From positions 124,001-188,000 of the forward strand of contig JANQKV010000004.1 of assembly GCA_028280945.1 (NCBI GenBank): DNA of 64,000 nucleotides, given 5' to 3'. Numbering within the stretch: position 1 is the first letter of the stretch; each line of letters begins with the position of its first letter. The stretch is from Opitutaceae bacterium. GTDB lineage: Bacteria > Verrucomicrobiota > Verrucomicrobiia > Opitutales > Opitutaceae. Below are positions 47,128 through 64,000 of this stretch, piece after piece. The notes under the pieces are model-generated. The model was not told the origin of the DNA, did no database searches, and was given only the letters and a program-made list of their open reading frames with translations. Position numbers and translations under genes: made by a program.

Positions 47128-47913
47128 CTAGTCGTAGCGTTGCCAGGGGAGCTTGTTCTTGTCGACCCAGCGGTAGTGGTCAGTGTAGCGGAGGCCGGCC
47201 GCGGAAGATTCGTCGAGGACGACGGTGGCGCGGGGGTGTTCCTGCAGTGAGGATCCGGGGCAAATGGCGGCGAGCGGGCCTTCGATCATGTCCATCACGG
47301 CCCTCACTTTGGCGGGACCGAAGGCGAGCAGCACGATTTGACGCGCTTCCATGATGGTTCCGATGCCCATCGTGACAGCGTGCCGAGGCATGGAGTCGCG
47401 ATCGCCGAAGACGGCGGCATTGTCGTTGAGCGTCTGCTCGGAGAGAATCTTAATCCAAGTACGGGATCGCAGGGAGCCGGAGGGTTCATTGAACCCGATG
47501 TGACCGTTGCGGCCGAGTCCAAGCAGTTGCACGTCAACACCACCGGCTTCCTTGATCCGTCGCTCGTAGTCTCGGCACTCGGCATGAAGATCATCCGCAT
47601 TGCCCGCCGGGACGTGGGTCTTGGCGAGGTCGATGTTGATGTGCCGAAACAGGTGCTCGTTCATAAAGTAGCGGTAGGACTGGTCATGCTCAGGTGGCAG
47701 TCCGACATACTCGTCGAGGTTAAAGGTCGTGACTTGGCTGAAATCCAAGCCTTCGTCGCGGTGCATGCGCACGAGTTCCCGGTAGAGGCGCTCCGGCGTG
47801 CGACCGGTGGCAAGCCCCAAAACCGCATCGGGCTTCTCACGCACCTTTTTGGCAATGACTTTGGCGCCCAACAGGCAACCGTCCTCGGCATTCGATTGGA
47901 TGATGACTTCCAT
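47128..47913 (-). CDS. nagB: Glucosamine-6-phosphate deaminase
   Basis: A 261-residue enzyme converting glucosamine-6-phosphate to fructose-6-phosphate and ammonia. VLGLATGRTPERLY is the phosphate loop, FNLDEYVGLPPEHDQSY the catalytic Asp region, and LLGLGRNGHIGFNEPSG the family signature with the catalytic His. The start at MEVIIQSNAEDG is typical; the longer upstream frame is rejected. It lies 29 bp after the GH9 glucosaminidase-like gene on the same strand, which supplies a clear metabolic link. Confidence 0.95.
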   Translation of the reverse strand: MEVIIQSNAEDGCLLGAKVIAKKVREKPDAVLGLATGRTPERLYRELVRMHRDEGLDFSQVTTFNLDEYVGLPPEHDQSYRYFMNEHLFRHINIDLAKTHVPAGNADDLHAECRDYERRIKEAGGVDVQLLGLGRNGHIGFNEPSGSLRSRTWIKILSEQTLNDNAAVFGDRDSMPRHAVTMGIGTIMEARQIVLLAFGPAKVRAVMDMIEGPLAAICPGSSLQEHPRATVVLDESSAAGLRYTDHYRWVDKNKLPWQRYD

Positions 47914-47942
47914 GATAGAACAGGGGTTAGGGTTTAGGAGCC

Positions 47943-49628
47943 CTAGGCCGTATCGCGGACCGCGAGCGTATACAACAACCAAGCGGCATGCGGCAGCCAT
48001 TGTTCACCCCACCGCCATCTTTGCGACGGGTCTTCGTTCCAAGGCAGTGGCTGAAACGCGATATCCGTTTCGTCCTCAAAGCCTGACGTGATGCCGTTAC
48101 ACACTCCCCCCGGGCCATTAAAGAACCCGGGTTGGTAGGCCGGATTATTACGGCCGTGTCCCTGCATCATGCAGCTATCGAATGGATTAGCTCCGAAGAT
48201 CCAATCCACCCAACCCTCGGCCGCTGATTGCAGCGACGCTTCATCCGGCGCCACCGTCCAAACCGCTCCGGCCAACGAGGCCAGCGCCGCATTTTCACCC
48301 TGCCACCAATAACCCGACGGGTTCTCATGCGGGTAGAACCACTGCCGCCTACCTTCCTGCCCGGGAGCTTTCACCCAATGGGGCGGATAACCAAACGGAT
48401 TGCCGGCAGACCCTCCCAACTGAACAACCGCAGCCAGCCACTCCTCCGCCAATTGGACGGCGGCATCCGCTTCCGCCAGCGATGGGTGCAACTCCGCGGC
48501 CCGCGCCAATGCCAACGCCGGCAAACCGGCATCGCTGGCGTGAAACCATGACCGCTCGCCCGCATCGTCCATGGCCAGCCAAACATGACCGCCCGTGTCG
48601 CGTCGACGACCGAGCATGCCCCGCAGCCGCCGCTCAAGTTCAGCCATCACGTCCGGTTCGGGAGCGATGGCCGCAAGCTCGGCCGCCCCAAGCAGCGCAC
48701 ACGTTTCGTCGATCAGGTTTTCCTGGCCGTCGTCGAGATAGGAGAGTCCGTGTTCCACCAAGTGACGAAGCCCCCGCAGCGCTGCCGCTTTGTAGTCGTC
48801 GGTTGAATATGATCCACCCTCCCCGGCACCGGCCGCCAACGCCAAGGCCGCCACAGCCATACCGCCGCCCTGTCGCCAGCCGGCCTGGTAGTCGGCATGC
48901 TTGTGACCCTGCTGGGTGGCGTAGGAGCAGAGTTCGCGCTGTTCCGGGTCCTTGGACCACTTGTCGAAGAGCGTCACATACCAGAAACCCGCCGCATCCT
49001 GCATCCGCATCAGCCAGTCCGCACCATGCAGGGCTTCGTCGCGCAGCCGTTCCACGAAGTAATCCCCGCCTTTGTCGGCCGCTGCGTAGCGTTGCCAGGC
49101 TCGCCCCAATACCCAGGCCACCATGGGGTTCTGTTGCGGGTTCATCACATTGGCATAGGAAAGATGACTGAGGTATTTGCTGTTGTCGCCCGACGCATCG
49201 AACCATCCCCCACTCACGTCGCGGGATTCGCGGTCATCGAGCCGAGGCGCCTTCGCATCAGCCCGATCCCAGATACCCGAGGAGCGCTGGCTTTTGATGT
49301 GGAACAAGAGGTCCGAAACCACCGCCGGCCCCAACAAGCTCTCGCCGATGGTAAAACCTTCGCTTTGGCCGCGTGTTCCGTCCATGAGGGTCCACGCCAC
49401 GGCATAACGACCGGGTTCAGTCACCGCGGAAACGTCCACCGGCCACCACGGACCCAGATGCCAGCCCTCAACCCTCTCGGCCGGGCCGGGCCGACCTTGC
49501 CAAACCTCCGCTCCGTCCGACAACCGCACCAAGCTGACCTGGTCCCACTGCGTATCTGCCGGAGCCTCGACCAGGATGCGTTTTGTCGCATCGGGAGCGT
49601 AACCCACATGATTGAACAGTGCTCTCAT
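47943..49628 (-). CDS. GH9-family cytoplasmic exo-glucosaminidase-like enzyme
   Basis: A 561-residue GH9 protein without signal peptide. An N-terminal Ig-like domain (MRALFNHVGYAPDATKRILVE) precedes the (alpha/alpha)6 barrel. SGGWFDASGDNSKYLSHLSYAN contains the GH9 Asp pair in the form I associate with Vibrio chitin-locus GH9 proteins, which act on glucosamine oligomers. The end has RWRWGEQWLPHAAWLL with the probable general-acid Glu. The ATG at 49628 overlaps the previous stop (ATGA). Followed by nagB: inference is hydrolysis of GlcN-containing oligosaccharides in the cytoplasm. An endoglucanase role is less likely. Confidence 0.8.
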   Translation of the reverse strand: MRALFNHVGYAPDATKRILVEAPADTQWDQVSLVRLSDGAEVWQGRPGPAERVEGWHLGPWWPVDVSAVTEPGRYAVAWTLMDGTRGQSEGFTIGESLLGPAVVSDLLFHIKSQRSSGIWDRADAKAPRLDDRESRDVSGGWFDASGDNSKYLSHLSYANVMNPQQNPMVAWVLGRAWQRYAAADKGGDYFVERLRDEALHGADWLMRMQDAAGFWYVTLFDKWSKDPEQRELCSYATQQGHKHADYQAGWRQGGGMAVAALALAAGAGEGGSYSTDDYKAAALRGLRHLVEHGLSYLDDGQENLIDETCALLGAAELAAIAPEPDVMAELERRLRGMLGRRRDTGGHVWLAMDDAGERSWFHASDAGLPALALARAAELHPSLAEADAAVQLAEEWLAAVVQLGGSAGNPFGYPPHWVKAPGQEGRRQWFYPHENPSGYWWQGENAALASLAGAVWTVAPDEASLQSAAEGWVDWIFGANPFDSCMMQGHGRNNPAYQPGFFNGPGGVCNGITSGFEDETDIAFQPLPWNEDPSQRWRWGEQWLPHAAWLLYTLAVRDTA

Positions 49629-51361
49629 CGCAAAGCCTCCCATCCCCAGTTGATCGGCTCGTCGCCCCGCGAGGCGATGGCCAGCATCAATACGATGTCC
49701 GCCTGCGCGCCGATCGTCGCCTCATGGCAGACGAAGTCATGGTCGTAGTCGAAGAAAACCGCGGATTCGGTCTGGAACGGATCCAGGCGGGGATTGGGCG
49801 GCGGATCAAAATACCGCCTCATGCTTTCGTGCATGCGTCGCTGAGCGGGACCGGCCGACAGGGCGCCAACCGGGTAGCGTTGCAGCAACTCGGCGGTTGG
49901 GCTGTAGAGATTTTCCAAGCGGTTCGGCAGGCGCTCATCGTAGAAGAACGACACGCCCCAGTTGTTGCGCCCAAACACATAAGTAAGCACATCGTTGAAC
50001 AAAACCGTGCCGTCGCGTTGAACGATATCGGCATCTTGCGCCGCGCGGGTGGCATGGGCCGCGCCAATCCAACGGGCCAAGCTGCCCCAAACATAGCGGA
50101 TGGGCACTCCCCAAGGCTGACCACTTTCCCGGGCGTAACTCAGGTAACTTCCGACCTCGGCAGACAGCCCTTCGCGCCCGGCTTCAATGCCCGCCGCGGT
50201 CAGCCCGGTGTTGGCCAACCAGTGCCAGTCCGCCCAGCCGGCCTCGCCGCCGGGGCCGGGCGCGTATTCTGCCGCAACCTTCAGCCAATCCTCTTCCGGA
50301 AAGAGCACCGCCAACTCCAGGGCCGCCAGGCACATCTGGTCGCGCTCGGTGGGATCGCGATAAAAGTCGTTTGTGCTGCTGCGCTCGAACGTAAACGACA
50401 CCGTATCCGGTTCGAGGGCACGCCGCATGAGGGCTCGCGCCATCGCCGCACAGCGATCGGCCAGTTCGTCGTCGTGACCCCGCATCACCCGGCTGCCTCG
50501 CGCCAAAGCGGCCACCGTTGAGGCCATTTGCACGCGCGCCAGCGCAGTTTTGGCGGGACGGTCCCCATCCAGGGCATCATCGGCCGGCAGGCGCCACCCT
50601 TGATTGTGGTCCCGGGTGTCACCGACTTGGACAATGAACGTGTCGCGGTCGGGCCAGAGCTTCAGCGCGTAGTGGAGGCCGTGGCGGATTTCATCGAGAA
50701 CGTCCGGCAACTCCGAGGTGCTGTTGACCCGTTGAAAAATCTCCGGTGCGACCCCATACGCAACGGTCAGGTGGTAGAGCGCATAAGTCGTGGTGAGGGT
50801 GAACTTGATATGATCACCCGCATCATACCAGCCGCCCAGACCATCCACGATGCGTCCGTTCGGTTCCCGTTGCCAGGAGCCCTCGGTCGGATCGCCATCG
50901 GGCACCATCACCCATGCCTCAGCGTCACCAAAGTGGGAAGGTCGCCGCCATTTCACTGTATCGGTTCCGGAGCGCGACATGCGCAGGTGGACCAGCGGCA
51001 AATGGGCGATTTCCGCAAACGGTTGCTCCCGCACTCGAATCAACGCCGACTCCGCGCCGGGAACTTCGAGGGTGTAATCACCGAGGGCACGAATCTCGCT
51101 CAGGTCGATTTCGTAGTTAAAAGGCTTCGGGGTGTTGGGGCCGACACCCATGAGCGACTCGCCAAACTTGCCGCTGTGTTGCACTTGCGCGCCCCGGATC
51201 AGCCAGTTCTCGCCAGCCAAATCCCGGTCGCTCATCACGATGATTTCCTTGGGTTGATCGGGCCGATAGCCCAGCTGGTTCCAGCGCACCCAGCTCTCTG
51301 CCGAGAGCGTGGACGCGCAGAGAACGATCAACAAACAGATCGCTACGGTGGGGGGTTTCAC
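49625..51361 (-). CDS. Exported GH9-family glycoside hydrolase
   Basis: A 578-residue GH9 enzyme with signal peptide (MKPPTVAICLLIVLCASTLSA), an N-terminal CelD_N/Ig-like domain (RWNQLGYRPDQPKEIIVMSD) and a GH9 barrel. GGWYDAGDHIKFTLTTTYALYHL holds the catalytic Asp residues. FVYGRNNWGVSFFYDERLPNRLENLYSPTAELLQRYPVGALSAGP and CHEATIGAQADIVLMLA form the end, with the likely acid Glu. The C-terminal motif is more divergent than in cellulases. It is first in the operon with the GH9 glucosaminidase-like gene and nagB, suggesting periplasmic pre-digestion of an amino-glycan. Confidence 0.82.
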   Translation of the reverse strand: MKPPTVAICLLIVLCASTLSAESWVRWNQLGYRPDQPKEIIVMSDRDLAGENWLIRGAQVQHSGKFGESLMGVGPNTPKPFNYEIDLSEIRALGDYTLEVPGAESALIRVREQPFAEIAHLPLVHLRMSRSGTDTVKWRRPSHFGDAEAWVMVPDGDPTEGSWQREPNGRIVDGLGGWYDAGDHIKFTLTTTYALYHLTVAYGVAPEIFQRVNSTSELPDVLDEIRHGLHYALKLWPDRDTFIVQVGDTRDHNQGWRLPADDALDGDRPAKTALARVQMASTVAALARGSRVMRGHDDELADRCAAMARALMRRALEPDTVSFTFERSSTNDFYRDPTERDQMCLAALELAVLFPEEDWLKVAAEYAPGPGGEAGWADWHWLANTGLTAAGIEAGREGLSAEVGSYLSYARESGQPWGVPIRYVWGSLARWIGAAHATRAAQDADIVQRDGTVLFNDVLTYVFGRNNWGVSFFYDERLPNRLENLYSPTAELLQRYPVGALSAGPAQRRMHESMRRYFDPPPNPRLDPFQTESAVFFDYDHDFVCHEATIGAQADIVLMLAIASRGDEPINWGWEALR

Positions 51362-52300: not shown

Positions 52301-52382
52301 GGCTTGGTCCCAACGGAGGGCGAAGTCGGGAATGAGTGCCGCGGCCGGTCAGGCCTCATTGATGTGATGAGGTCGAATTTTA

Positions 52383-52398
52383 TTGCAATTCTATGCAA
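52383..52398. promoter_or_regulatory. LacI-type operator upstream of the GPH symporter
   Basis: TTGCA-ATTCTA-TGCAA: perfect 5-bp inverted arms spaced by six bases, 71 bp before the symporter ATG. It has the same TGCA-N6-TGCA geometry as sites at 58570, 63321 and 63353. Confidence 0.7.
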
Positions 52399-52469
52399 TT
52401 TTTTGGTGAGGTAACGGTCGTCGGTCGATCCTCGACCCACGCAAAACCCCTCCAACCTCCCCCGTTTCC

Positions 52470-53855
52470 ATGTCATCCCCCTCTGCTCCGGACGCGTCCG
52501 GCCATCTCTCGTTTCGCGAAAAAGTCGGCTACGGTCTCGGCGACACGGCATCCAATTTCGTTTTTCACACCGTCAACGTCTTCCTGTTCTTCTATTATGT
52601 CGATGTGATGGGCATGGGCGCGGCAGCCATCGGCACGCTTTTTCTGGTCGCCCGACTGCTGGACACAGTGACCGATCCGTTGATGGGCACGATCGCTGAC
52701 CGCACGAACACACGCTGGGGCAAGTATCGGCCCTATCTCTTGTGGCTGGCGGTGCCCTTCGGCATCTGTGGGTACCTGCTGTTCGCGGTGCCGGACACGG
52801 ATCCTTCCGGGCAATTGGTCTACGCCTACGTGACCTACATCGCGGTGATGTTGGTCTACACCGCCATCAACATTCCCTACTCCGCCCTGCTGGGGGTGAT
52901 CACGCCCGTTTCCGCCGAGCGCACGTCCGTGGCCAGTTACCGGTTCGCGTGCGCGTTCGGGGGACAACTGTTGATCGTTGCCGCCGCTCGACCGCTGGTC
53001 GATTACTTCGGAGCGGACGATACGGCGGCAGGGTATCGGGTCACCATGGGCATCTTTGCCGTGATTGCCGTCGTGCTCTTCATGATGACGTTCAGCATGA
53101 CCCGCGAACGGGTGCAACCGCCCCCCGGCCAGAAGTCGGATTTGGTGAAGGAACTGGGGCTGCTCCTGCGCAATGTGCCGTGGATCGTGATGTTCATCGC
53201 GGGCATATTCACGCTCGCCAATGTCGCGGTGCGTGGCGCGGTCACGTTGTTCTACTTCAAATACTATGCCGGAGACGACGGTTCGCCCTGGTTGTGGAAA
53301 TTCGACATGAGCACCGTATTCCTGACCGCGGGCACGATCGCACTGATCATCGGTGTCATGTGCACCAAGTGGCTGACCCCACTCGGTGACAAACGTCAGC
53401 TCATGATCGTGCTGTCAGCCATGAACGCGGCCGTGATGGCGCTCTTCTATTTCGTGCCCCAGGACGCAATCGGCATGATGTTCTTCATGAACGTGCTCGG
53501 CGCGTTGATTGCCGGTCCCACCATCCCGTTGGTGTGGTCGATGTTCGGAGACGTGGCCGACTACGGGGAATGGAAATTCGGCCATCGCACCACCGGCCTG
53601 GTGTTCTCCGGCGTGCAATTTGCCCAGAAATTTGGTCTCGCCATCGGCAGCGCCATGGCGGGGTGGATGCTGGCGGGATTCGGCTACGTGGCTGATGCCG
53701 AACAATCTCCCGAAGCGATTCAAGGCATCCGCCTGATGTTCACCGTGTTGCCCGCACTGTTCGCCGTTGGTGGCGTCGCCGCCATCTGGTTCTACCCAAT
53801 CAGCGGGAAGGATGTTGAACGCATGAGCCGAGAACTCGCCGCCAACAAATCCTGA
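52470..53855 (+). CDS. GPH-family sugar:cation symporter
   Basis: A 461-residue transporter with about twelve membrane helices, of the glycoside-pentoside-hexuronide (MelB/XylP) family. LSFREKVGYGLGDTASNFVFHTVNVFLFFYY is the hallmark start. DTVTDPLMGTIADRTNTRWGKYRPYLLW contains the conserved D-P-x-x-G-x-x-x-D-R-T region and R-x-x-x-W-G-K/R-Y-R-P. It imports oligosaccharides with Na+ or H+. A LacI-type operator lies upstream and the GH94-like gene follows by 51 bp, so the pair forms one operon for uptake and cleavage of a glycan. Confidence 0.92.
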   Translation: MSSPSAPDASGHLSFREKVGYGLGDTASNFVFHTVNVFLFFYYVDVMGMGAAAIGTLFLVARLLDTVTDPLMGTIADRTNTRWGKYRPYLLWLAVPFGICGYLLFAVPDTDPSGQLVYAYVTYIAVMLVYTAINIPYSALLGVITPVSAERTSVASYRFACAFGGQLLIVAAARPLVDYFGADDTAAGYRVTMGIFAVIAVVLFMMTFSMTRERVQPPPGQKSDLVKELGLLLRNVPWIVMFIAGIFTLANVAVRGAVTLFYFKYYAGDDGSPWLWKFDMSTVFLTAGTIALIIGVMCTKWLTPLGDKRQLMIVLSAMNAAVMALFYFVPQDAIGMMFFMNVLGALIAGPTIPLVWSMFGDVADYGEWKFGHRTTGLVFSGVQFAQKFGLAIGSAMAGWMLAGFGYVADAEQSPEAIQGIRLMFTVLPALFAVGGVAAIWFYPISGKDVERMSRELAANKS

Positions 53856-53906
53856 ACCTGTCACTCTTCACCACCCTGCAGATCGATCTCTCGACCCATT
53901 TTCACC

Positions 53907-56900
53907 ATGAGCACTCGCACGCTTACTCCTCTCTCGTCCGATGCTGCCGACAACAAGCTCGCCGATGTTCAAGGCCAGTTGTGCACGGCATTTGGCATCC
54001 GTTGCTACCGCATCAGCAACGTGCATCGCCTGCCGCCGTTCTTCATCAATTTGGTCAGCGCTTCCGACCTGTGGATGTTCATTGCCAGCAACGGCGCTCT
54101 CACCGCCGGTCGTCGCGATGCGGAATGCGCGTTGTTCCCCTACCAGACGGTGGATCGGATCTACGACAGTGCGGGACAGATCGGTCCGCTCACTCTCCTG
54201 GGGGTCGATACGCCCGACGGTGAGGTAGTGTGGCAACCCTTTGGCTCCGACACCAACCACCTGCCCCAGTTAACCCGCCACCTCTACAAGAGCATCGAAG
54301 GTGATCGGCTTTGGTTTGAGGAAGTTCGCGAAGATTTGGGCCTGGCATTTTGCATGAGCTGGTCGACGGCCGACAGCCACGGTTTCATCCGCCACTGCAC
54401 CCTGCGCCGGCTAAGCGGGAACACGGTAAAAGTCCGCATCCTGGATGGGCTCCGCAACATTCTCCCGGCCGATGTTTCCCTGCGGCTGCAAAGCCTGAGC
54501 AGCAACCTGGTCGATGCTTACAAAACCGCCGCGCTGCAGCCTGATTCCACCTGTGCCGTCTTTGCCCTGCAGTCCCAGATCGTGGACCTGCCGAAACCAA
54601 TGCAGGCCATGCATGCCAGCGCCGTGTGGTCCACCGGACTGCCCGAATCAACCATTGCGCTTTCCGATCGTCAGATCGATCGCTTCCGGAGTGGTGAACC
54701 CTTGTCTACCGAACCCCACACCCGCGGTGTGCGCGGCGCCTACCTCATCAGTACGACAGTCGAGCTCAAACCCGAGCAGACCATCGACTGGTATGTGGTG
54801 GCCGACACCAACCTTGGTCACGCCGATGTGGTCGCCCGGGTCAATCAATCGCGGGATCCCGACGCGGCGACGAAGTTGCAGGAGGCACAAGCGGAGGCAA
54901 CCCATCAACTCCGGCAACTCGTTGCGGCTGCGGATGGCTGCCAGACTTCAGCCGACACCGTCACCGCCGCCCACCACTTCGCCAACGTGCTCTACAACGT
55001 CATGCGTGGGGGCACCTTCACCGCGGATCACCGCCTGCCCTCGGCGGACTTTGCCGAGCATGTCGCGGTGCACAACCAGGCGGCCGCTGAACGCCATGCC
55101 GAATTTCTGGCCGGACTGCCCGCGGAACTGGAACGCAGCGAACTGCTCGCCCGGGTCACCGCCCTGGAGGATCCCGACCTCACGCGCATCGCCTCGTGCT
55201 ATCTGCCCCTCTCGTTCAGCCGTCGGCACGGCGATCCCAGCCGGCCGTGGAATCGGTTCAGCATTCGCCTGCGCAACGCCCAGGGCGGCCGCCTGCTGGC
55301 CTACGAAGGCAACTGGCGCGACATCTTCCAAAACTGGGAGGCCCTGTGCCTCAGCTATCCGGAATTTCTCGATGCGGCGATCGCCAAGTTCCTCAACGCG
55401 TCGACCGCCGACGGTTACAATCCCTATCGCATCACCCAGGCGGGCATCGATTGGGAGGAGCCCGACCCCGAGGACCCGTGGGCCTCGATCGGTTACTGGG
55501 GTGATCATCAGGTTGTCTACCTGCTGAAACTGCTGGAGTGGTCCGACCGCCTGCATCCCCGGCGTCTGGCGGGCACCCTGCGCCCCGCCTCCTTCAGCTA
55601 CGCCGACGTTCCGTATCGTATCTGTGGATACGATGAAATGCGGCGCGACCCCCGGAACAGCATTACTTTCGACGAGTCCTACAACCGGGCCATCGCCGAG
55701 CGCGTCACCGCCATGGGAGCCGATGGCAAGCTGTTGCCGGCGGCGGACGGATCGGTGCAACACGCCAACCTGACCGAGAAGCTGCTCGTACTGGTGCTGG
55801 TGCGGCTGACCAACTTCATCCCGGGGGGCGGCATCTGGATGAATACCCAGCGTCCGGAATGGAATGACGCCAACAACGCCCTGGTGGGTTATGGTGTTTC
55901 GGTCGTCACCCTGAACTACCTTCGCCGCATGCTGGCCTTCACCCAGTCGACACTCTGGCCGATGCTGGGGGAAGCGAAGGTGCCGGTGGCAGCCAACGTG
56001 GCCCGGCTGGCGGAATCCGTGGAGGCAACCCTCAATCGCCATCGGGACCAACTCGGCAACGCGGACCTCGACCCATCCACCCGGCGTGAAGTGGTCGATG
56101 CGCTGGCCACGGCCGGTGCGGACTACCGCCGGGAGCTCTATGCTTCCGGCGTCGGCACGACGGTCGAGATCGAGGCCGCTTCGTTGCGATCCCTGTTTAC
56201 CACCGCACTGGAGTTTGTGGACCACAGCCTGCGCGCCAACCAGCGGCCCGACCGGTTGTTCCATGCCTACAACCTCCTGGGTTTCGCCGAGGATCCAGCG
56301 GCCCTGTCGCTGCGCCGCCTGCCGGAAATGCTGGAGGGACAGGTTGCCGCACTGAGCTCCGGATTGCTGTCGCCCGCGGAGGTTGTCGCCTTGCTGAAAG
56401 CCATGCGCAACAGCGCGATTTACCGCGAGGATCTCCAGACCTATCTGTTGTATCCGGACCGGCAATTGCCGGGCTTCATGGACCGCAATATCATCCCGGA
56501 AGCAGCGTGGGCGAGCTGCCCGCTCTTCGAAGACATGGCGGCGCAGGGTGACCATCGCCTCGTCCTGCGCGACGAATCCGGCCAGGCGCACTTTCAAGCC
56601 AACCTTGTCGACGAGGAGGCGCTCGAAAACGTGCTTGCCGAGCTCAGCAACGACCCCACCTGGACTGCGGCAGCAGCCGATCAGGCTGAAACGGTGCGCG
56701 CCGTCTACGAGGAAGTGTTCAATCATCGCGCCTTCACCGGCCGCAGCGGCGGCATGTTTGGCTTCGAAGGCCTGGGATGTGTTTATTGGCACATGGTGGC
56801 GAAGCTGTTGCTCGCGGTGCAGGAGAACCTTCTCACCGCCCAAGCCGGGCAATCACCCGAAGTGCCCGCACTCGTGGAGGCCTACTACGAAATCCGCGCC

Positions 56901-57383
56901 GGGCTTGGCTTCAATCATTCGCCCGCCGTGTTCGGGGCCTTCCCCACCGACCCGTATTCCCACACTCCGGGACATGCCGGGGCACAACAGCCCGGCATGA
57001 CCGGCCAGGTGAAGGAGGAAATCCTCACCCGGCTGGGTGAACTGGGAGTTGAGTTCAACAACGGCACCGTTGGTTTCAAACCCACGTTCCTGCGTCGCCA
57101 GGAGTTTCACGAGACGCCGTCGGAGTTTGCCTACATCGATCTCGGCGGCCAGGCCCGCACCCTGTCGTTACCGGCAAACGCCCTCGCATTCACCGTGGCC
57201 GGTATCCCGATCGTGTATCAGCTTTCTGATGACAAATCCCGTCATGTGGTTCACGGCAAGACCTCGATGGACGCGGCCGGAACCCAATTGGACGTCCCCA
57301 TCAGTGAGGCATTGCTCAAGCGTTCCGGCCACATCGATCACATCGTCGTGACGATCGGAACCGAGTTCGATCTGCCCGCCTAA
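53907..57383 (+). CDS. Large GH94/GH36-like (alpha/alpha)6-barrel protein, specificity unknown
   Basis: A 1158-residue protein without signal peptide. The first ~450 residues are beta-rich (YQTVDRIYDSAGQIGPLTLLG, GVRGAYLISTTVELKPEQTIDWYVV), like the beta-sandwich of GH94/GH65 proteins. The rest is helical, with NWRDIFQNWEALCLSYPEFL, DPWASIGYWGDHQVVYLLKLLEWSD, GGGIWMNTQRPEWNDANNAL and the end PGMTGQVKEEILTRLGELGV, a phrase also typical of GH94 phosphorylase C-termini. It is longer than GH94 cellobiose phosphorylases (~800 residues). It may be a phosphorylase or hydrolase acting on imported oligosaccharide. The catalytic acid and substrate cannot be assigned by eye. Confidence 0.75.
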   Translation: MSTRTLTPLSSDAADNKLADVQGQLCTAFGIRCYRISNVHRLPPFFINLVSASDLWMFIASNGALTAGRRDAECALFPYQTVDRIYDSAGQIGPLTLLGVDTPDGEVVWQPFGSDTNHLPQLTRHLYKSIEGDRLWFEEVREDLGLAFCMSWSTADSHGFIRHCTLRRLSGNTVKVRILDGLRNILPADVSLRLQSLSSNLVDAYKTAALQPDSTCAVFALQSQIVDLPKPMQAMHASAVWSTGLPESTIALSDRQIDRFRSGEPLSTEPHTRGVRGAYLISTTVELKPEQTIDWYVVADTNLGHADVVARVNQSRDPDAATKLQEAQAEATHQLRQLVAAADGCQTSADTVTAAHHFANVLYNVMRGGTFTADHRLPSADFAEHVAVHNQAAAERHAEFLAGLPAELERSELLARVTALEDPDLTRIASCYLPLSFSRRHGDPSRPWNRFSIRLRNAQGGRLLAYEGNWRDIFQNWEALCLSYPEFLDAAIAKFLNASTADGYNPYRITQAGIDWEEPDPEDPWASIGYWGDHQVVYLLKLLEWSDRLHPRRLAGTLRPASFSYADVPYRICGYDEMRRDPRNSITFDESYNRAIAERVTAMGADGKLLPAADGSVQHANLTEKLLVLVLVRLTNFIPGGGIWMNTQRPEWNDANNALVGYGVSVVTLNYLRRMLAFTQSTLWPMLGEAKVPVAANVARLAESVEATLNRHRDQLGNADLDPSTRREVVDALATAGADYRRELYASGVGTTVEIEAASLRSLFTTALEFVDHSLRANQRPDRLFHAYNLLGFAEDPAALSLRRLPEMLEGQVAALSSGLLSPAEVVALLKAMRNSAIYREDLQTYLLYPDRQLPGFMDRNIIPEAAWASCPLFEDMAAQGDHRLVLRDESGQAHFQANLVDEEALENVLAELSNDPTWTAAAADQAETVRAVYEEVFNHRAFTGRSGGMFGFEGLGCVYWHMVAKLLLAVQENLLTAQAGQSPEVPALVEAYYEIRAGLGFNHSPAVFGAFPTDPYSHTPGHAGAQQPGMTGQVKEEILTRLGELGVEFNNGTVGFKPTFLRRQEFHETPSEFAYIDLGGQARTLSLPANALAFTVAGIPIVYQLSDDKSRHVVHGKTSMDAAGTQLDVPISEALLKRSGHIDHIVVTIGTEFDLPA

Positions 57384-57403
57384 GCAGGCGGGCCTTCGGG
57401 CGG

Positions 57404-58495
57404 CTAAGCGCGCTTGCGTTTTGCCGCCCGACGCCTGGCCGGCTTTGGCTGGGTGACCGACTCGCCTTCGATCACGTCGCAGTTGAGCAGAATGTGTTGC
57501 TGCGAATCGAAGCGCTTCTGAATCAGGTCGAGCAGACGTTTTCCTCCGATCACGCCGATCTGATGAAACGGGATTCCAACCGTGGTCAGTTTGGGCAGGC
57601 CCTTCAGCGGTTCGAGTCCGTCAAAGCCGGTGACCGACACATCCTGCGGGACTTTGAGGCCCGCAGCGTCCAGCGCCTTCATGAGATCAAACGCCTGGTG
57701 GTCGGCGGCGCACATCCAGGCCGTCACACCGGCCCTGGTCTGCTTGATGACTTCGGCGTGGGACTCTTCCAATGACAAGCGGCGCCGCGGATCGACGTTG
57801 ATGGCATCCTCCGCACGGATCTCCAGTCCACGAGCGGTGAGCATCTCAACGTAGGCCCCGTAGCGACGCAGCGCCCAGCCCGCCTCCACCGGGTAACGCC
57901 ACGTGAAGAATCCGATGCGACGATGCCCTTTATCCCGCAGGTGTTCAACCAACCGCTCGACGCCACGGTGGTGGTCGACGTCCACACAATCGAGCGGGCT
58001 TTGACCATATTGCTCCACCAACGAAACCACCGGGTGCATCCTGCGCAGCTCGTCGACGATGGTGTGGGGAAACGGATAAATCAGCACCACGCCGTCCCAG
58101 AGCCGGCGACCGGTCGCCACGATGTCAGCGTAGGACGGCTCATTGATGTGCAGGGCCTCCGGACGCACGAAGTGCAAGTCGAGCCGCACATCCTGGGCGC
58201 GCGCCAACTCGGACAACCCGTTCAACAATTCCTGCCCGGGATTGCCGTAGTCGGTGCGTTCGAAACTCGGCAAGTCCACACAGATCAAAACCCCCAGCGT
58301 CGTGGATGTGCGGCGACGTTGATGGATCGCGGGCTCACGCTTTTCCGCGTGGCTGTAGCCCAGTTGGGAAGCGAGGGCAAAAACCTTGCCCCGGGTCGTC
58401 GCATTGATGCCCGGATGATTGGTAAAACACCGCGACACCGTGGCACGGGAGATTCCGAGTTTTTCGGCAATATACTGTTGATTGATCTTGGGCAT
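57404..58495 (-). CDS. LacI-family transcriptional repressor
   Basis: A 363-residue regulator: N-terminal LacI helix-turn-helix and hinge (QYIAEKLGISRATVSRCFTN, HPGINATTRGKVFALASQLGY), then the sugar-binding sensor (TLGVLICVDLPSF, HRRIGFFTWRYPVEAGWALRRYG, CAADHQAFDLMKALDAAGLK, VSVTGFDGLEPL, LTTVGIPFHQIG). It ends with a basic tail rich in Lys/Arg. Start at MPKINQQYIAEK. The divergent promoter to the GH-A gene contains an inverted repeat that recurs before the symporter and TonB genes, so this repressor is the best candidate to control them all. Confidence 0.95.
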   Translation of the reverse strand: MPKINQQYIAEKLGISRATVSRCFTNHPGINATTRGKVFALASQLGYSHAEKREPAIHQRRRTSTTLGVLICVDLPSFERTDYGNPGQELLNGLSELARAQDVRLDLHFVRPEALHINEPSYADIVATGRRLWDGVVLIYPFPHTIVDELRRMHPVVSLVEQYGQSPLDCVDVDHHRGVERLVEHLRDKGHRRIGFFTWRYPVEAGWALRRYGAYVEMLTARGLEIRAEDAINVDPRRRLSLEESHAEVIKQTRAGVTAWMCAADHQAFDLMKALDAAGLKVPQDVSVTGFDGLEPLKGLPKLTTVGIPFHQIGVIGGKRLLDLIQKRFDSQQHILLNCDVIEGESVTQPKPARRRAAKRKRA

Positions 58496-58569
58496 ACGAA
58501 GGGGCCGGCGCCTCAAGGCTTGGGGTTCAAAGACAGAATTTACGCACTGAACACTCAATGCAATTTTTA

Positions 58570-58585
58570 ATGCAATTATATGCAT
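58570..58585. promoter_or_regulatory. LacI-type operator in the LacI/GH-A divergent promoter
   Basis: ATGCA-ATTATA-TGCAT, perfect 5-bp inverted arms, spacer six. A further TGCA lies 12 bp upstream (58559-58562), making a denser cluster. It is 75 bp before the repressor start and 44 bp before the GH-A gene start. Confidence 0.7.
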
Positions 58586-58628
58586 CTAATCGCTTTACCA
58601 CCGCGGTGCACTCGGACAGAAAAGAAGG

Positions 58629-59909
58629 GTGAAAAGTCTGCGCCCCAAGACGACTGCCCCTGGACCGTCATCCATTGACGGCATGGTTGATGCGCGGGCA
58701 GACGTTGCCATCAAACGCGACACTAAGGGGCGGTGGCGAGTATACCGAAACGGCATACCTTTCGAAATCCGCGGTGCGGGGGGCCACGAGCATTTGGAGC
58801 TCCTGCGCGACAGTGGTGGAAACACCGTGCGGACCTGGGGCATCGAACAACTGGAAGGCCGGGAGAACGGTCAATCGTTGCTTGATATCGCCCATGATCT
58901 GGGGCTCGCCGTGATCGCCGGCATCTGGCTCGAACATCCGCGCCATGGCCATGACTACGGCGACCCGGACTTTCTCCAGTTCCAACGGGAACACGTCCGC
59001 ACCGTCGTGCAAAAATACCGCGATCACCCTGCCCTGCTCATGTGGGGTTTGGGCAACGAAATGGAAGGGACGGGTGACGATCCCCGGATCTGGCAGGAGC
59101 TGGAAGTGCTGGCCCAAATCGTCAAAACCGAGGATTCCGCGCACCCCATCTGCACCGCGCTTGCCGGCACCGACAACAACAAGGTGGCGCGCATGCAGGA
59201 ACACTATCACTCGCTCGATATTCTGGGCATCAATTGCTACGGAGGTGCGCCGGGAATTGCCGCCCGACTGCGAGCGCAAGGCTGGAACCGTCCCTACATG
59301 CTTACCGAGTTCGGACCCGTCGGTCACTGGGAGATCGCCAGCACCGAGTGGGACGCGCCACTTGAACCAACCTCGATCGAAAAAGCGGACACCTATGCAG
59401 CCTCCCACCGCGCGCAACTTGAGCACGGGCGCGGTCTGTGCCTGGGCTCGTTTTGTTTTCTCTGGGGGCATAAACAGGAAACCACCGCGACTTGGTTTGG
59501 CATGTTTTTGCCCACTGGCGAAAAGACCCCGGCCGTGGATCAAATGATCCGTCTTTGGACCGGTCGGGAGCCGGCCAACCGAGCGCCCCTGATTTATGCG
59601 CTGCATTCCGAATTGGATTCCGCCGTCGTTTCTGCCGGGACCGAGTGGACCGTGTCGGCGGACGCCATCGATCCCGATGGCGAAAAACTGCATTACGAAT
59701 GGCAAGTGATCGCTGAGACGACGGACCGGAAGTCGGGTGGCGATTTCGAAATGGCGCCACCCACGATCCCGGATTGCGTGGTGTTTGACGACGGTCGCAC
59801 AGCGCGGATTCGGGTGCCGCACCAGCCCGGGGCCTACCGGGTGTTTCTTTTCGTGCGGGACGGCAAAGGCGGAGGTGCCGCCGGGAATTTTCCGTTCATG
59901 GTCGAGTGA
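58629..59909 (+). CDS. Clan GH-A glycoside hydrolase (GH2/GH5-like TIM barrel)
   Basis: A 426-residue enzyme without signal peptide. RNGIPFEIRGAGGHEHLELLRDSGGNTVRTWG is the start of a TIM barrel as in GH2/GH5-like proteins. LMWGLGNEMEG provides the acid/base Glu (about residue 144) and YMLTEFGPVGHWE the nucleophile Glu (about 227), the clan GH-A pattern. The last ~90 residues (SAVVSAGTEWTVSADAIDPDGEKLHYEWQV) look like a PKD/Ig-like domain. A GTG at 58629 is taken as start, with an ATG at 58683 as alternative. It is divergent from LacI and shares its operator. It probably cleaves the same oligosaccharide as the GH94-like neighbour. Confidence 0.85.
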   Translation: MKSLRPKTTAPGPSSIDGMVDARADVAIKRDTKGRWRVYRNGIPFEIRGAGGHEHLELLRDSGGNTVRTWGIEQLEGRENGQSLLDIAHDLGLAVIAGIWLEHPRHGHDYGDPDFLQFQREHVRTVVQKYRDHPALLMWGLGNEMEGTGDDPRIWQELEVLAQIVKTEDSAHPICTALAGTDNNKVARMQEHYHSLDILGINCYGGAPGIAARLRAQGWNRPYMLTEFGPVGHWEIASTEWDAPLEPTSIEKADTYAASHRAQLEHGRGLCLGSFCFLWGHKQETTATWFGMFLPTGEKTPAVDQMIRLWTGREPANRAPLIYALHSELDSAVVSAGTEWTVSADAIDPDGEKLHYEWQVIAETTDRKSGGDFEMAPPTIPDCVVFDDGRTARIRVPHQPGAYRVFLFVRDGKGGGAAGNFPFMVE

Positions 59910-60002
59910 GACCGGCCAATGGAGGGTTTCGCTCCGCGAAGTCCTGCGATCGGAGCAACCACCTGCAACCGAGTCAAAGCGCTGAGCAGTGTCCGCGGGC
60001 AT

Positions 60003-60070
60003 GGGGTCAGGCTGACATAAAAGTGCAATGCAGCCCGCAGGGCGGAATTCACTTTTTGCAGCCTGACCCC
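60003..60070. repeat. REP-like element A (GGGGTCAGGC ... GCCTGACCCC)
   Basis: Terminal arms GGGGTCAGGC (60003-60012) and GCCTGACCCC (60061-60070) are exact inverted repeats. The core contains CCGCAGGGCGGAATTCAC (60035-60052), whose exact reverse complement is in element B. Confidence 0.75.
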
Positions 60071-60180
60071 CTCTCGTGTTCGAACGTCGTCCAACACGCC
60101 CGCAGACAAAACCACGCTTGATCGGCCCGACTGGGCTTTGCGGCCATGAACACGCTGGCGCCGGGCGGGTGGTTTTGGAC

Positions 60181-60260
60181 GGGGTCAGGTTTCAGACGGG
60201 GTCAGGCCGGAAAAGGTGAATTCCGCCCTGCGGAATTACACATTTTAACGGCCTGACCCC
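60181..60260. repeat. REP-like element B (inverted relative of element A)
   Basis: Arms GGGGTCAGGCC (60198-60208) and GGCCTGACCCC (60250-60260) are exact inverted repeats; an additional GGGGTCAGG lies at 60181-60189. The core contains GTGAATTCCGCCCTGCGG (60216-60233), exactly the reverse complement of 18 bases in element A, so A and B are inverted copies. Confidence 0.75.
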
Positions 60261-60330
60261 TACGTTCGGGCGGTTTCTCGAAAGATCTGTATTCGTTTTA
60301 TGGTTACACATTCGGCCAGATCCGGATCAC

Positions 60331-60361
60331 AAAAACGCCCGGGCCGTTGCCGGCCCGGGCG
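60331..60361 (-). terminator. Intrinsic terminator of the TonB receptor gene
   Basis: On the minus strand CGCCCGGGCCG-GCAA-CGGCCCGGGCG is a perfect 11-bp stem followed by TTTTT. Confidence 0.9.
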
Positions 60362-60390
60362 GAGTAGAATACTACAGTCCAGAGAAGGTT

Positions 60391-63264
60391 TTAGAACTCC
60401 ATGCCGAATTCGAGGCGGGCAGAGATGCCGGGGGCGAACCCGAGACCATACTGGTCCTTGTCGTCGAGCACGTTGTTCACATTGAGCTGAACGCGGGTCG
60501 GACGTTCCATCATGGTGAAGTTGTAGCTGACCATCAGGTCCAGGTTGAGGCGGGGATCGGTGTAGAGCGCGATCGGGTTGCCATCGGCGTCGACCTGCAA
60601 CTGACCGGAGCCGTCCGTACGGGCACTGACGAACTCACGCTCGGATTCCCACTGACCACCAAAGCCAACGGTCAGACCGGCGAGAGGGCCGTCCTGGGCA
60701 AACTTGTAGGTGCCCCAGACCGCGGCGGAGTGCTCCGGCGTGTCGTCATCGGAACCGATGCCGAGGTAACCGGCCCCCGTCCAGGAGGAGGAGTCATACG
60801 GGTTGGAATAAGCCTCTTCGAGCGGGAAACCGCTGAGACCCCAGCTGCCATCCGGGAAATACCAGTTGGCCCAGCGATCGTTCTCCGCCGGGTGGCGCGG
60901 GAAGGTGCCGACGTTGAGGGTCTTGCGCTCGAGGTTCGAGTAGGTGAACAGCACCTGCAACTGGTCAGAAGCGGACCAGAGCAGCTGGAAGTCGTAGCCC
61001 TTGGACTCGTCGTCACCAGGGCTGAAGGCCTGGAAGGTGCCACGGTCGGGAGCCGCGCGGTCCATGGTGGCGATGTTCACGTTCGGATCATCGATGTTGA
61101 AATACCATCCGGGCCAACCTTGGCCGGCAGAGACGTTGGCATAGACCTGATCCATGTAGGCGGCACCCGCCGGATTGGAGGCGTTGAGATACCACTTGCC
61201 ATCCTGCTGGTAGGCTGCACCGGCGGCCTTGGCGGCGTTCCACTCGGTGAGCGCGTTCTGCTGGGCGGCGGACCAGTCGGCTTGGCCGACCTCGGGGTTC
61301 GCCCCCTCAACGAGATAGACGATATCCGCGTTGGGGTTGAACTGGTTCTTGGCCGGCGCCGGGGACCACCAATAGAAGTAGGGAGTGCCTGAGCGCTCGA
61401 TCTCGAAGGCCGAGACGGTGCCCGAGAGCTTGCCGTTGAAGAGGTCAACCTTGACACCGTATTCCCGGCTACGGGCGATGGTGGCGTCGATCGGGCGACC
61501 ATTGCCGTCGCGCAGGCCATCGAAGTTGGGCACAAGACCCTCGGAATCGACCGCAAACACCGAGATTTCGTTGGTGATCTGGAAGCTCGCCCCAAGCTGG
61601 GTGGTAGTGTCGGTCTGGGCGTCGCGAATGATGTCGGAGCTGTTGCCCGGATTGATGGCGTCGATGGTTTGGACGCGGTTATCGTTGGTATCCTCACGCA
61701 TACCCGCAACGATGGTCAGGCGGTCGTCGAGCCAGGTGCCCTGGTAGACGCCGTAGAGACCTTGGTTGGTCGCCTCGTTGAAGGTGTCGTTGATACGACC
61801 CATGGGGGCGTCCGGCGTGCCGTCGCCCTGGGTGCCGAAACGAATGTAGGAGGAATCCGTTGGATTCTTGTAGTTGTTGAAGCCCGGCAGGGTCTGGTCG
61901 AAACGACGACGGTTCTCCGAGTTCTCATCGGTATAACCCGCGAGGAAACTGTGGTTCATGCCGAACCACTTCGAGTCCGGCAAAGTGTCGATATTGTAGG
62001 TGAGCTCGACGCGCACTTGGTCGCGATCGGTGGTCTCGTAAAAATCGGACCAGAGATACTGGAAGGTCACGTCATCAGCCTGGCCACCGGAGAACGCACC
62101 ATCGTCCGGGGTGAGCGGCTCGACGATGATGGAACCACGCTGTGATTCGGGACCGACGCCAAATTGCAACGCACCACCCACGTCGCGGCCCTTGAACCGG
62201 GTGAAGGAAGTATTGTATCCCGCGAGAAGATAAAGGTCCTCAGCGAGCTTTTGCTCGAGCTTGATCAGAAGATTGTGGGCCTTCGAATTCACGAAGGTGT
62301 CCGGTCCGGACCAGCGGAAGGTGCGGCGATCCTCGCCGGGGAAGGTAAGGAAGCCGGCGCGTTCGAGACGGTCCTGCTGGTTGGCGGGAACGTCGGCGCG
62401 GGCGCGGACACTTTGGAACCCGGTGCCTGTGATGTCTTCCTCACCGTATTCACCATCGATCGTGATCGTGGTGTTCTCGAAGGGCTTGATCGTGAAGACC
62501 GGAGCAAAGAAGAATTTGTCGGACTCGCGCAGCTCCGTGTAGTCGCCGGAGGTCTGCCACGCGCCGGTCATGCGGAAGGCAACGTTGGGTGAATTGGGCA
62601 GCGCATAATTGGTATCGAACGCCGTGCGGAAGTAATCGTCGGTGCCAACACCAACGATGACTTCGTGGCGGTCGTAGTCGAGCGGGCGCTTGGGCAGGTA
62701 GTTCACAATCCCACCAAAGTTGCCGATGCCGTAGAGCAGCGCGGCCGGTCCCCGAATAACCTCAATGCGGCCGATGTTGGCGGAGTCGGTGGCAAACTGG
62801 CGGCGGAAGCCGTCGCGCAGCACCGAGTCGGTAATGAAACCCCGGATCTTAACGGTGGTCTGGGTTTTCGCTGCCGTCGCACCCTCCTGGCTGTGAACGC
62901 CACCTTCATTCACGAAGGTATTGCCCTGGCCGGCATCGTTCTGCGAGTTGAGGATAATGCCCGCACTGTAGCGCAGGGATTCACGAAGATCGGTCGAACC
63001 CGTGTCTTTGACGAATTCCTCGGTAATCACCTCGATCGGCATGGGCATGTCCTTGATCAAGGTATTGAGACGGGAACCGGATACCGAGTTGGTGGCGCGG
63101 TAACCTTGGTCCTGAGTCGTATCCACCGTAAACGGGGAAAGCTCGATAACGTCATCGTCTTCGTCGACCGACAACGGAGTTGCTGGCTCCTGCGCGGAGA
63201 GCAACGGAACCAGCGCTAGGCTGGTCAGCGCCAAAGTATGGCGGGAGAACGCAGTGAAGTTCAT
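60391..63264 (-). CDS. TonB-dependent outer-membrane receptor
   Basis: A 957-residue receptor. Signal peptide HTLALTSLALVPLLSAQ, then an acidic leader and VIELSPFTVDTTQDQGYRATN. The plug domain has RLNTLIKDMPMPIEVITEEFV, LRESLRYSAGI and IEVIRGPAALLYGIGNFGGIVNYLPKRP. About 22 beta strands follow, ending in LEFGMEF with the terminal Phe needed for barrel assembly. Such receptors import siderophores, B12 or, in this lineage, often oligosaccharides. The start at MNFTAFSRHTL was chosen; the longer frame lacks a signal. Two LacI-type operators upstream tie it to the glycan regulon. It has its own strong terminator. Confidence 0.94.
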   Translation of the reverse strand: MNFTAFSRHTLALTSLALVPLLSAQEPATPLSVDEDDDVIELSPFTVDTTQDQGYRATNSVSGSRLNTLIKDMPMPIEVITEEFVKDTGSTDLRESLRYSAGIILNSQNDAGQGNTFVNEGGVHSQEGATAAKTQTTVKIRGFITDSVLRDGFRRQFATDSANIGRIEVIRGPAALLYGIGNFGGIVNYLPKRPLDYDRHEVIVGVGTDDYFRTAFDTNYALPNSPNVAFRMTGAWQTSGDYTELRESDKFFFAPVFTIKPFENTTITIDGEYGEEDITGTGFQSVRARADVPANQQDRLERAGFLTFPGEDRRTFRWSGPDTFVNSKAHNLLIKLEQKLAEDLYLLAGYNTSFTRFKGRDVGGALQFGVGPESQRGSIIVEPLTPDDGAFSGGQADDVTFQYLWSDFYETTDRDQVRVELTYNIDTLPDSKWFGMNHSFLAGYTDENSENRRRFDQTLPGFNNYKNPTDSSYIRFGTQGDGTPDAPMGRINDTFNEATNQGLYGVYQGTWLDDRLTIVAGMREDTNDNRVQTIDAINPGNSSDIIRDAQTDTTTQLGASFQITNEISVFAVDSEGLVPNFDGLRDGNGRPIDATIARSREYGVKVDLFNGKLSGTVSAFEIERSGTPYFYWWSPAPAKNQFNPNADIVYLVEGANPEVGQADWSAAQQNALTEWNAAKAAGAAYQQDGKWYLNASNPAGAAYMDQVYANVSAGQGWPGWYFNIDDPNVNIATMDRAAPDRGTFQAFSPGDDESKGYDFQLLWSASDQLQVLFTYSNLERKTLNVGTFPRHPAENDRWANWYFPDGSWGLSGFPLEEAYSNPYDSSSWTGAGYLGIGSDDDTPEHSAAVWGTYKFAQDGPLAGLTVGFGGQWESEREFVSARTDGSGQLQVDADGNPIALYTDPRLNLDLMVSYNFTMMERPTRVQLNVNNVLDDKDQYGLGFAPGISARLEFGMEF

Positions 63265-63320
63265 GGGTTTGTTTGGGTTGGAAGGCACGGGGGTGGGGGT
63301 GGGGGTTCTGTGCCAGCTTG

Positions 63321-63336
63321 TTGCATAGATGTGCAT
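63321..63336. promoter_or_regulatory. LacI-type operator 1 upstream of the TonB receptor
   Basis: TTGCA-TAGATG-TGCAT, TGCA-N6-TGCA geometry, 57 bp before the receptor start (minus strand). Confidence 0.6.
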
Positions 63337-63352
63337 AATGGCCGTTTCGTCA

Positions 63353-63368
63353 ATGCAATTTTATGCAC
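63353..63368. promoter_or_regulatory. LacI-type operator 2 upstream of the TonB receptor
   Basis: ATGCA-ATTTTA-TGCAC, same geometry, with its centre 32 bp from operator 1 (about three helical turns). It is nearly identical to the site at 58570. Confidence 0.68.
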
Positions 63369-63602: not shown

Positions 63603-64000
63603 ATGCTCTCCGCGCTTATGTTTTCCTTTGCCCTCTCCCCTGAATCGCGACGGCTCGCCGTGGTCCTGGCCTCCGCCCTCATTTTCGCCGGATGTAACAG
63701 ATCTGCGGATACCGAAGCCGATGCGGCGAGCGACAAACCCGAGGTTGCGCTGGTCATGAAGTCCCTGGCCAACGAGTTCTTCAAGACCATGGCCGATGGC
63801 GCGGAGGCGCACCAGGCCGCCGGTGCCGCGGACTACGACTTGATCGTCAATGGCATCAAAAACGAAACCGACCTCGCCCAGCAGGTGAACCTGGTCGAGC
63901 AAATGGTCGCCCGAGGCGTTGATGCCATTGTGCTGGCCCCGGCCGACTCCAAGGCCCTCGTCCCCGCCATTGCCCGCGCCCAACGCGCCGGGGTTCTGGT
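63603..64000 (+). CDS. Sugar-binding lipoprotein of an ABC transporter (partial)
   Basis: It runs off the window. A lipoprotein signal (RRLAVVLASALIFAGC) is followed by KPEVALVMKSLANEFFKTMADGAEAHQ, DYDLIVNGIKNETDLAQQVNLVEQMVARGVDAIVLAPADSKALVPAI. This is the RbsB/periplasmic-binding-protein type I pattern. ATG at 63603 or 63618 is possible. Expected neighbours beyond the window are the ATPase and permease. The ligand is probably a monosaccharide such as ribose, xylose or galactose, which cannot be told from the N-terminus. Confidence 0.85.
   Translation, partial: MLSALMFSFALSPESRRLAVVLASALIFAGCNRSADTEADAASDKPEVALVMKSLANEFFKTMADGAEAHQAAGAADYDLIVNGIKNETDLAQQVNLVEQMVARGVDAIVLAPADSKALVPAIARAQRAGVL

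What the first reader, a model, noticed from the sequence alone, without database searches (positions are those of the whole stretch)
52383..63368. One LacI regulon marked by TGCA-N6-TGCA operators across 11 kb
Inverted repeats with identical geometry occur before the GPH symporter (52383), in the LacI/GH-A divergent promoter (58570) and twice before the TonB receptor (63321, 63353). Genes downstream cover outer-membrane import, inner-membrane import and two cytoplasmic glycosidases. This defines a single oligosaccharide-use system from the sequence alone. I did not notice the site elsewhere in the window by eye.
Basis: partly seen in the sequence, partly recalled or inferred. Interest (0 to 1): 0.75.

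Follow-up and report, generated by a model that had tools for sequence, protein, structure and literature searches.

The report
LacI switch for beta-1,3-glucan use
A repeated short DNA tag marks the promoters of genes that import and digest beta-1,3-glucan (laminarin-type sugar), and comparison with relatives suggests that one LacI-type protein reads it as a head-to-tail repeat rather than as the mirror-image site usual in its family.

Summary
TGCA-N6-TGCA occurs four times in the window, only in the three named promoters (one base right of the stated coordinates); the rest of the genome predicts 0.034 for such a stretch. The core TGCAATTNTATGCA occurs five times in the genome: three here and two on other contigs, before a GH16 laminarinase and a GH72-like gene. 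The genes are a TonB receptor, GPH symporter, GH149 beta-1,3-glucan phosphorylase, GH158 enzyme and LacI: a beta-1,3-glucan regulon larger than 11 kb. In 150 family genomes the exact site is in 15 of 16 with the LacI orthologue and 1 of 134 without. The LacI clade reaches Planctomycetes; 72 of 80 named loci carry TGCA-N6-TGCA.

Main correction: TGCA is self-palindromic, so the core cannot tell inverted from direct repeats. Flanking bases favour a rigid direct repeat, TTGCAT-N4-TTGCAT (head-to-tail 40 places, the two inverted forms 5 and 5, in 16 genomes). That is unusual for LacI proteins; the nearest precedent is CytR. Binding, repression and inducer are inferred, not shown.

The parts
52384..52397 (-). 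Operator before the GPH symporter; in repeat orientation TTGCATAGAATTGCAA (head to tail, 10-bp period)
   Evidence: also before GPH in G145, G090, G111 and G128, but not in G064 and G020
52352..52374 (+). Terminator-like hairpin between the ThuA gene and the GPH promoter
   Evidence: one found, mean 0.3 in shuffles
52470..53855 (+). GPH sugar:cation symporter (inner-membrane import)
   Evidence: PF13347 328 bits; TIGR00792 387 bits, cut-off 231
53907..57383 (+). GH149 beta-1,3-glucan phosphorylase
   Evidence: NF058639 1449.7 bits, cut-off 1150
57404..58495 (-). LacI-family regulator (likely start ATG at 58495, not the longer ORF start at 58585, which lies beyond the operator)
   Evidence: PF00356, PF13377; orthologues align from this start
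58571..58584 (-). Operator in the LacI/GH158 divergent promoter; repeat orientation ATGCATATAATTGCAT; a further TGCA box lies 12 bp away
   Evidence: a TGCA-N6-TGCA site upstream of LacI in 15 of 16 orthologue loci
58629..59909 (+). GH158-family enzyme (the family's beta-1,3-glucanase activity is recalled)
   Evidence: PDB 9oro 'GH158(Pro)' 314.9 bits, E 9e-93
60391..63264 (-). TonB-dependent outer-membrane receptor
   Evidence: PF07715 54.5 bits
63322..63335 (+). TonB-promoter operator, gene-proximal (TTGCATAGATGTGCAT on +)
63354..63367 (-). TonB-promoter operator, distal (GTGCATAAAATTGCAT on -), 32 bp from the proximal one and oppositely oriented
   Evidence: a pair exactly 32 bp apart in 8 of 9 TonB promoters examined

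Best explanation
The LacI-family protein (57404-58495) is the autoregulated local regulator, most likely a repressor, of a beta-1,3-glucan (laminarin-type) use regulon. It sits on operators of two 6-bp boxes, TTGCAT-N4-TTGCAT, head to tail one helical turn apart, at its own/GH158 promoter, the GPH-GH149 promoter, the TonB promoter (two oppositely oriented operators 32 bp apart) and, elsewhere in the genome, at a GH16 laminarinase and a GH72-like gene. A beta-1,3-gluco-oligosaccharide taken up through TonB and GPH would release it, switching on extracellular depolymerisation, import and cytoplasmic phosphorolysis and hydrolysis. Shown by sequence: sites, gene families, conservation, co-occurrence, flank asymmetry. 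Inferred: protein-DNA binding, repression, inducer, and that the poorly conserved linker lets both DNA-binding domains face the same way.
For: Clustering and genome distribution. Gene families: GH149, GH158, GH16 laminarinase (3iln, 288.9 bits), GH72-like (weak). Exact site in 15 of 16 genomes with the LacI orthologue (55% identity or more) and 1 of 134 without; Fisher P 1.6e-18, not corrected for relatedness. Recognition region SRATVSRCFTNHPGIN invariant in the 12 of 16 orthologues aligned. Named genomes: 137 sites in 72 of 80 loci against 5 to 31 for the other TGCA spacings tested (N2-N5, N7-N9). Within 400 bp upstream of LacI, 10-bp spacing 55 times, every other distance from 4 to 69 bp at most 5 times. 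Direct repeat: flank match 0.51 direct and 0.11 inverted at 55 LacI-promoter sites, 0.50 and 0.21 at 78 sites elsewhere, null about 0.34; head-to-tail pattern 40 places, the two inverted arrangements 5 and 5 distinct places; three or more boxes at 10-bp steps in L171, L228, L233, L247 and L259.
Against: No experiment. Regulon content varies: in the stretches fetched, GH149 lies by LacI in 6 of 16 orthologue loci (window, G145, G090, G111, G128, part in G058), and G064 and G020 have GPH without the site. Two of 37 exact places in the family lie inside ORFs (G008, G123:C341), and some trans targets are not obvious glucan genes. 12 of 71 clade loci of 8 kb or more show no GH149, GH158 or GH16 relative, while 11 of 31 SL-type paralogue loci do. 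7 of 17 CF/SF paralogues have no site within 400 bp upstream. G014 has the orthologue but no site in the 213 bp upstream on its contig. The hinge argument is weak: only 2 of 18 readable LacI proteins of this genome (window's own included) match a simple canonical motif, and the AlphaFold model is poor (pLDDT 67, pTM 0.49). In seven named genomes a degenerate head-to-tail pattern gives 79 places against 43 for its reversed control. The flank statistics ignore relatedness of the loci.
Confidence: 0.75

Rival explanations
1. Same regulon, but the operator is an ordinary LacI-type inverted repeat of TGCA half-sites whose asymmetry merely reflects a preferred A-tract centre (TAAAAT).
For: The core is palindromic, and GCA sits where PurR's half-site has it (recalled, no call); centres are A/T-rich, central pair AA/TT in 80 of 137.
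Against: An A-tract alone does not explain T rather than A before the second TGCA (45 T, 2 A of 56) nor the direct-repeat match of the flanks; inverted versions are rare; arrays of three to five boxes at 10 bp.
Confidence: 0.2
2. A different DNA-binding protein encoded elsewhere reads the sites, and LacI is a bystander or co-regulated gene.
For: No binding data; AraC-type proteins often use direct repeats (recalled), and an AraC gene flanks the GH16 gene on C17.
Against: Site presence tracks the LacI orthologue and, among paralogues, the recognition-helix type: CF/SF 10 of 17 with a site within 400 bp upstream, other types 3 of 38.
Confidence: 0.06
3. The system targets another glucan, such as cellulose or mixed-linkage glucan, given the two GH9 genes upstream.
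For: GH9-type genes at 47943 and 49625, kept nearby in G090 and, in part, in G145.
Against: There is no TGCA-N6-TGCA at the GH9 genes, which point the other way; the site-bearing genes are GH149, GH158, GH16 laminarinase and GH72-like.
Confidence: 0.1
4. LacI acts as an activator at some targets.
For: Site positions relative to promoters are not mapped; consensus promoter scans of the three regions found one weak match.
Against: Most LacI-family regulators are repressors (general knowledge); the nearest sites end about 45 to 75 bases before the likely start codons.
Confidence: 0.1

Closest known systems
CytR of enterobacteria (LacI family)
   Same: Best NCBIfam match to the window LacI (87.5 bits, far below the 436 cut-off). 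Half-sites share a TGCA core (TGCAA / GTTGCATT), and direct repeats of octamers with a 1-bp spacer occur as well as inverted ones (PMC3454398, abstract and passages). A flexible unstructured linker is named in the title of a paper cited by PMC5263246 (reference list seen in passages).
   Different: CytR spacing is variable, most of its sites are described as inverted repeats, and it works with CRP on nucleoside genes; here spacing is rigid at 10 bp, direct repeats prevail and targets are beta-1,3-glucan genes. A CRP partner was not tested.
Canonical LacI-family regulons (RegPrecise survey, Ravcheev 2014)
   Same: Local, autoregulated sugar regulon with sites upstream of start codons.
   Different: The survey reports palindromes, with a consensus central CG for 1173 of 1303 regulators (PMC4052901, passages). 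Here the central pair is CG in 4 of 137 sites and the repeat looks direct. The words Verrucomicrobi and glucan do not occur in its main text.
GH149 gene clusters of Proteobacteria and Bacteroidetes
   Same: GH149 with transporters, other GHs and, in type I clusters, a LacI or AraC regulator; TonB in type II (PMC5827456, abstract and passages).
   Different: Another lineage and gene set; its main text does not contain Verrucomicrobi, Opitut or Planctomyc, and no operator was seen in the passages.

Membership tests
LacI/GalR transcription factor family | N-terminal LacI HTH plus periplasmic-binding-protein-like effector domain | tested here: met
   PF00356 31 bits (cut-off 27), PF13377 92 bits
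LacI/GalR transcription factor family | Classical hinge motif (PNxxARxL type, recalled) after the HTH; typical, not required | tested here: inconclusive
   0 of 79 clade proteins match a simple pattern, but only 2 of 18 readable LacI proteins of this genome match a similar one, so the test discriminates poorly
LacI/GalR transcription factor family | Palindromic operator, usually with central CG; typical, not required | tested here: not met
   CG centre in 4 of 137; flanks favour a direct repeat
CytR | Score above the NCBIfam CytR equivalog cut-off | tested here: not met
   87.5 bits against 436
CytR | Variable half-site spacing | tested here: not met
   10 bp 55 times, any other distance from 4 to 69 bp at most 5 times
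CytR | Cooperation with CRP | not tested
   -
Beta-1,3-glucan use locus | Beta-1,3-glucan-type enzymes with the same operator | tested here: met
   GH149 in the GPH-GH149 gene pair, GH158, GH16 laminarinase
Beta-1,3-glucan use locus | Activity and growth on laminarin | not testable with these tools
   -

The most novel reading that the evidence does not exclude
A widespread LacI clade of Verrucomicrobiota and Planctomycetes has abandoned the family's two-fold symmetric operator. Its DNA-binding domains, freed by a loose linker, dock head to tail on boxes one helical turn apart, can extend into arrays of three to five boxes, and govern beta-1,3-glucan (laminarin) use.
Probability: 0.5. Interest if true: 0.7.

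Novelty: new variant of a known kind. Interest (0 to 1): 0.55.

Why it matters
Laminarin is described as the predominant marine beta-glucan (passage in PMC12915301). This gives a readable regulatory tag for its use in two phyla, so that regulon members can be found from sequence. If the direct-repeat reading is right, it is a rare and testable departure from how LacI-family proteins are thought to read DNA, with CytR as the only partial precedent I met.

Tried and rejected
Central 6 bp as the code separating paralogues: centres vary too much, and no fetched genome had both the orthologue and a CF-type paralogue (second matches in G117 and G014 were not fetched), so not claimed. Hinge loss as a special mark of this clade: weakened (2 of 18 readable proteins of the genome match the simple motif; 10 of 28 loci gave no readable match). 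Sigma-70 promoter placement: one weak match in three regions. The one-mismatch site C17:8035 lies under ORFs and was not counted. Twelve further regions around near-matches were fetched, eleven of them with two-mismatch sites; these eleven were not analysed. The degenerate repeat in seven named genomes gave 79 places against 43 in the reversed control.

Rows dropped: alignment A1 holds 12 of the 16 orthologues (L062 and L063 not entered; L070 stopped the calls by an in-frame stop in the coordinates given, and L071 was left out with it). Searches cover many but not all matches (71 distinct proteins after removing identical ones). Identical 30-mers were removed before the flank statistics, which leave the window's own site out; one search includes it. 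The sites were chosen by TGCA-N6-TGCA itself, so the cores carry no evidence on direction; only the flanks do. G128:C99:16 and C146:3708 are probably one site at two contig ends. Not all 40 places were inspected.
Full report
OBSERVATION. The four TGCA-N6-TGCA sites exist, one base right of the stated coordinates, and are the only ones in the window. In the 5.44-Mb genome there are 21. The density outside the finding predicts 0.034 in 11 kb, against four found. Of the other 17, 14 lie inside ORFs of 150 aa or more, one is ambiguous, and two are the promoters described below.

GENES. 52470-53855 is a GPH symporter. 53907-57383, without a Pfam match, is a GH149 beta-1,3-glucan phosphorylase (1449.7 bits, cut-off 1150). 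58629-59909 is a GH158 enzyme (314.9 bits to 9oro). 60391-63264 is a TonB receptor. 57404-58495 is LacI. The two GH9-type genes (47943, 49625) and the ThuA gene (about 51500) upstream carry no site; a terminator-like hairpin separates ThuA from the GPH promoter.

A LARGER REGULON. The core TGCAATTNTATGCA occurs five times in the genome. The two outside the window lie just before a GH16 lipoprotein whose best solved relative is a laminarinase (3iln, 288.9 bits) and a secreted GH72-like protein (PF03198 32.9 bits, cut-off 25.9). A motif defined in the window thus led to beta-1,3-glucan-type genes elsewhere. The C70 site is a perfect 8-bp direct repeat, AATTGCAT twice, 10 bp apart.

COMPARATIVE TEST. 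Of 150 family genomes, 16 carry a LacI at 55% identity or more; the other matches are 44% or less, apart from a partial second copy in G117 (54% over 197 residues). The exact site is in 16 genomes: 15 of those 16, and one other (G008, inside an ORF). The exception, G014, has a 5-kb contig with 213 bp upstream of LacI and no site there. Fisher P 1.6e-18, uncorrected for relatedness. TGCA-N6-TGCA stands upstream of LacI in 15 of 16 orthologue loci. GPH has it in the window, G145, G090, G111 and G128 but not in G064 and G020; GH149 lies by LacI in 6 of 16 (one partial); in G140 and G123 the LacI-divergent gene with the site is GH16. Outside the LacI loci, 14 places in the other genomes were inspected (G128:C99 and C146 probably one): GH16 (G128), GH72-like (G145), TonB (G128, G140, G058), neighbourhoods of a multi-domain GH16 gene (G044, G098), a PF12708 protein with weak similarity to solved beta-1,3-glucanases (G020, 45.9 bits; GH55 by recall), CBM4_9-fn3-di-haem proteins (G075, G098), FG-GAP/sulfatase genes (G145), and two places inside ORFs (G008, G123). 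In 8 of 9 TonB promoters examined two sites lie exactly 32 bp apart; G058 is the exception.

PHYLUM-WIDE CLADE. The clade marked TVSRCFTN occurs in Opitutaceae, Akkermansiaceae, Puniceicoccaceae and Planctomycetes such as Rhodopirellula and CA13 (record titles). 72 of 80 loci have the site, 137 in all; TGCA at spacings N2-N5 and N7-N9 gives 5 to 31. 59 of 71 loci of 8 kb or more encode a GH149, GH158 or GH16 relative, against 11 of 31 for SL-type paralogues. Among paralogues below 50% identity, CF/SF-type recognition helices have a site within 400 bp upstream in 10 of 17 and other types in 3 of 38 (P 1e-4).

DIRECT, NOT INVERTED. TGCA equals its own reverse complement, so the core cannot tell inverted from direct. 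Flanks can. At 55 distinct LacI-promoter sites the flanks match as direct repeats in 0.51 and as inverted in 0.11 of comparisons (null 0.35); at 78 sites elsewhere in the loci, 0.50 and 0.21 (null 0.34). With half-site orientation read from the flanks, 79 sites have both halves the same way, 16 opposed and 38 undecided. In 16 orthologue genomes KTGCATN4KTGCAT has 40 places (3 for the reversed pattern), while the inverted patterns have 5 and 5 distinct places; a palindromic pattern has half as many chances, so the fair comparison is 40 against about 10 expected from each. Within 400 bp upstream of LacI the 10-bp distance occurs 55 times, any other from 4 to 69 bp at most 5. Boxes extend in 10-bp steps to three or more in L171, L228, L247 and L259 and to five in L233. 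At LacI promoters the orientation is nearly fixed (35 forward, 1 reverse); elsewhere both occur (20 and 23), so a promoter element does not explain the asymmetry. These statistics do not correct for relatedness of the loci.

MECHANISM. The recognition region is invariant in the 12 aligned orthologues while residues 52-66 vary; the model has pLDDT under 50 at 48-61 and no clear hinge helix, but is poor overall. I infer a loose linker letting both domains face the same way, as described for CytR. The hinge point is only suggestive. Repression, inducer and binding are untested.

LITERATURE. Searches (open-access library; some lists capped, for example 15 of 52 and 12 of 345) listed no paper by title on a LacI regulon for beta-1,3-glucan in Verrucomicrobiota or on rigid direct-repeat LacI operators. 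PMC12915301 mentions a LacI-family gene in a beta-1,3-glucan cluster of an estuarine MAG and beta-1,3-glucanase expression by Opitutales (passages). Passages were read from PMC4052901, PMC3454398, PMC12915301, PMC5827456 and PMC5263246, no paper in full. Absence here is not proof of novelty.

VERDICT. A real regulon, ordinary in kind (LacI plus carbohydrate genes), unusual in operator architecture and wide in distribution.

Noticed in passing
L141:3181-6396 and L144:2904-6257: Secreted-looking CBM4_9-fn3-DHOR (di-haem peroxidase-like) proteins with the exact operator upstream in two genomes of one genus; a possible oxidative member of the glucan regulon.
   Followed up: partly
window 47128-51361: A glucosamine-6-phosphate isomerase-type gene and two GH9-type genes next to the regulon, kept nearby in some relatives, but without the operator.
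   Followed up: partly
window 63604-64000, L018: By eye, a sugar-binding lipoprotein-like gene and an ABC ATPase run divergently from the TonB gene; whether the TonB operators also control them is unknown.
   Followed up: no
L300-L327 (own genome): 28 LacI-family matches in one genome (27 over the cut-off); many readable ones carry a DPxLSxLM-like stretch where the classical hinge helix would be.
   Followed up: no
L208, L209, L216: GTTGCAACCGGTTGCA, a CG-centred TGCA-N6-TGCA site about 8 kb from LacI in three planctomycetes; perhaps another LacI protein's operator.
   Followed up: no
L101, L102: In genus g41 the LacI locus carries an ABC sugar transporter, distant GH158 relatives (28-31%) and, in L102, a GH30 gene.
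   Followed up: partly
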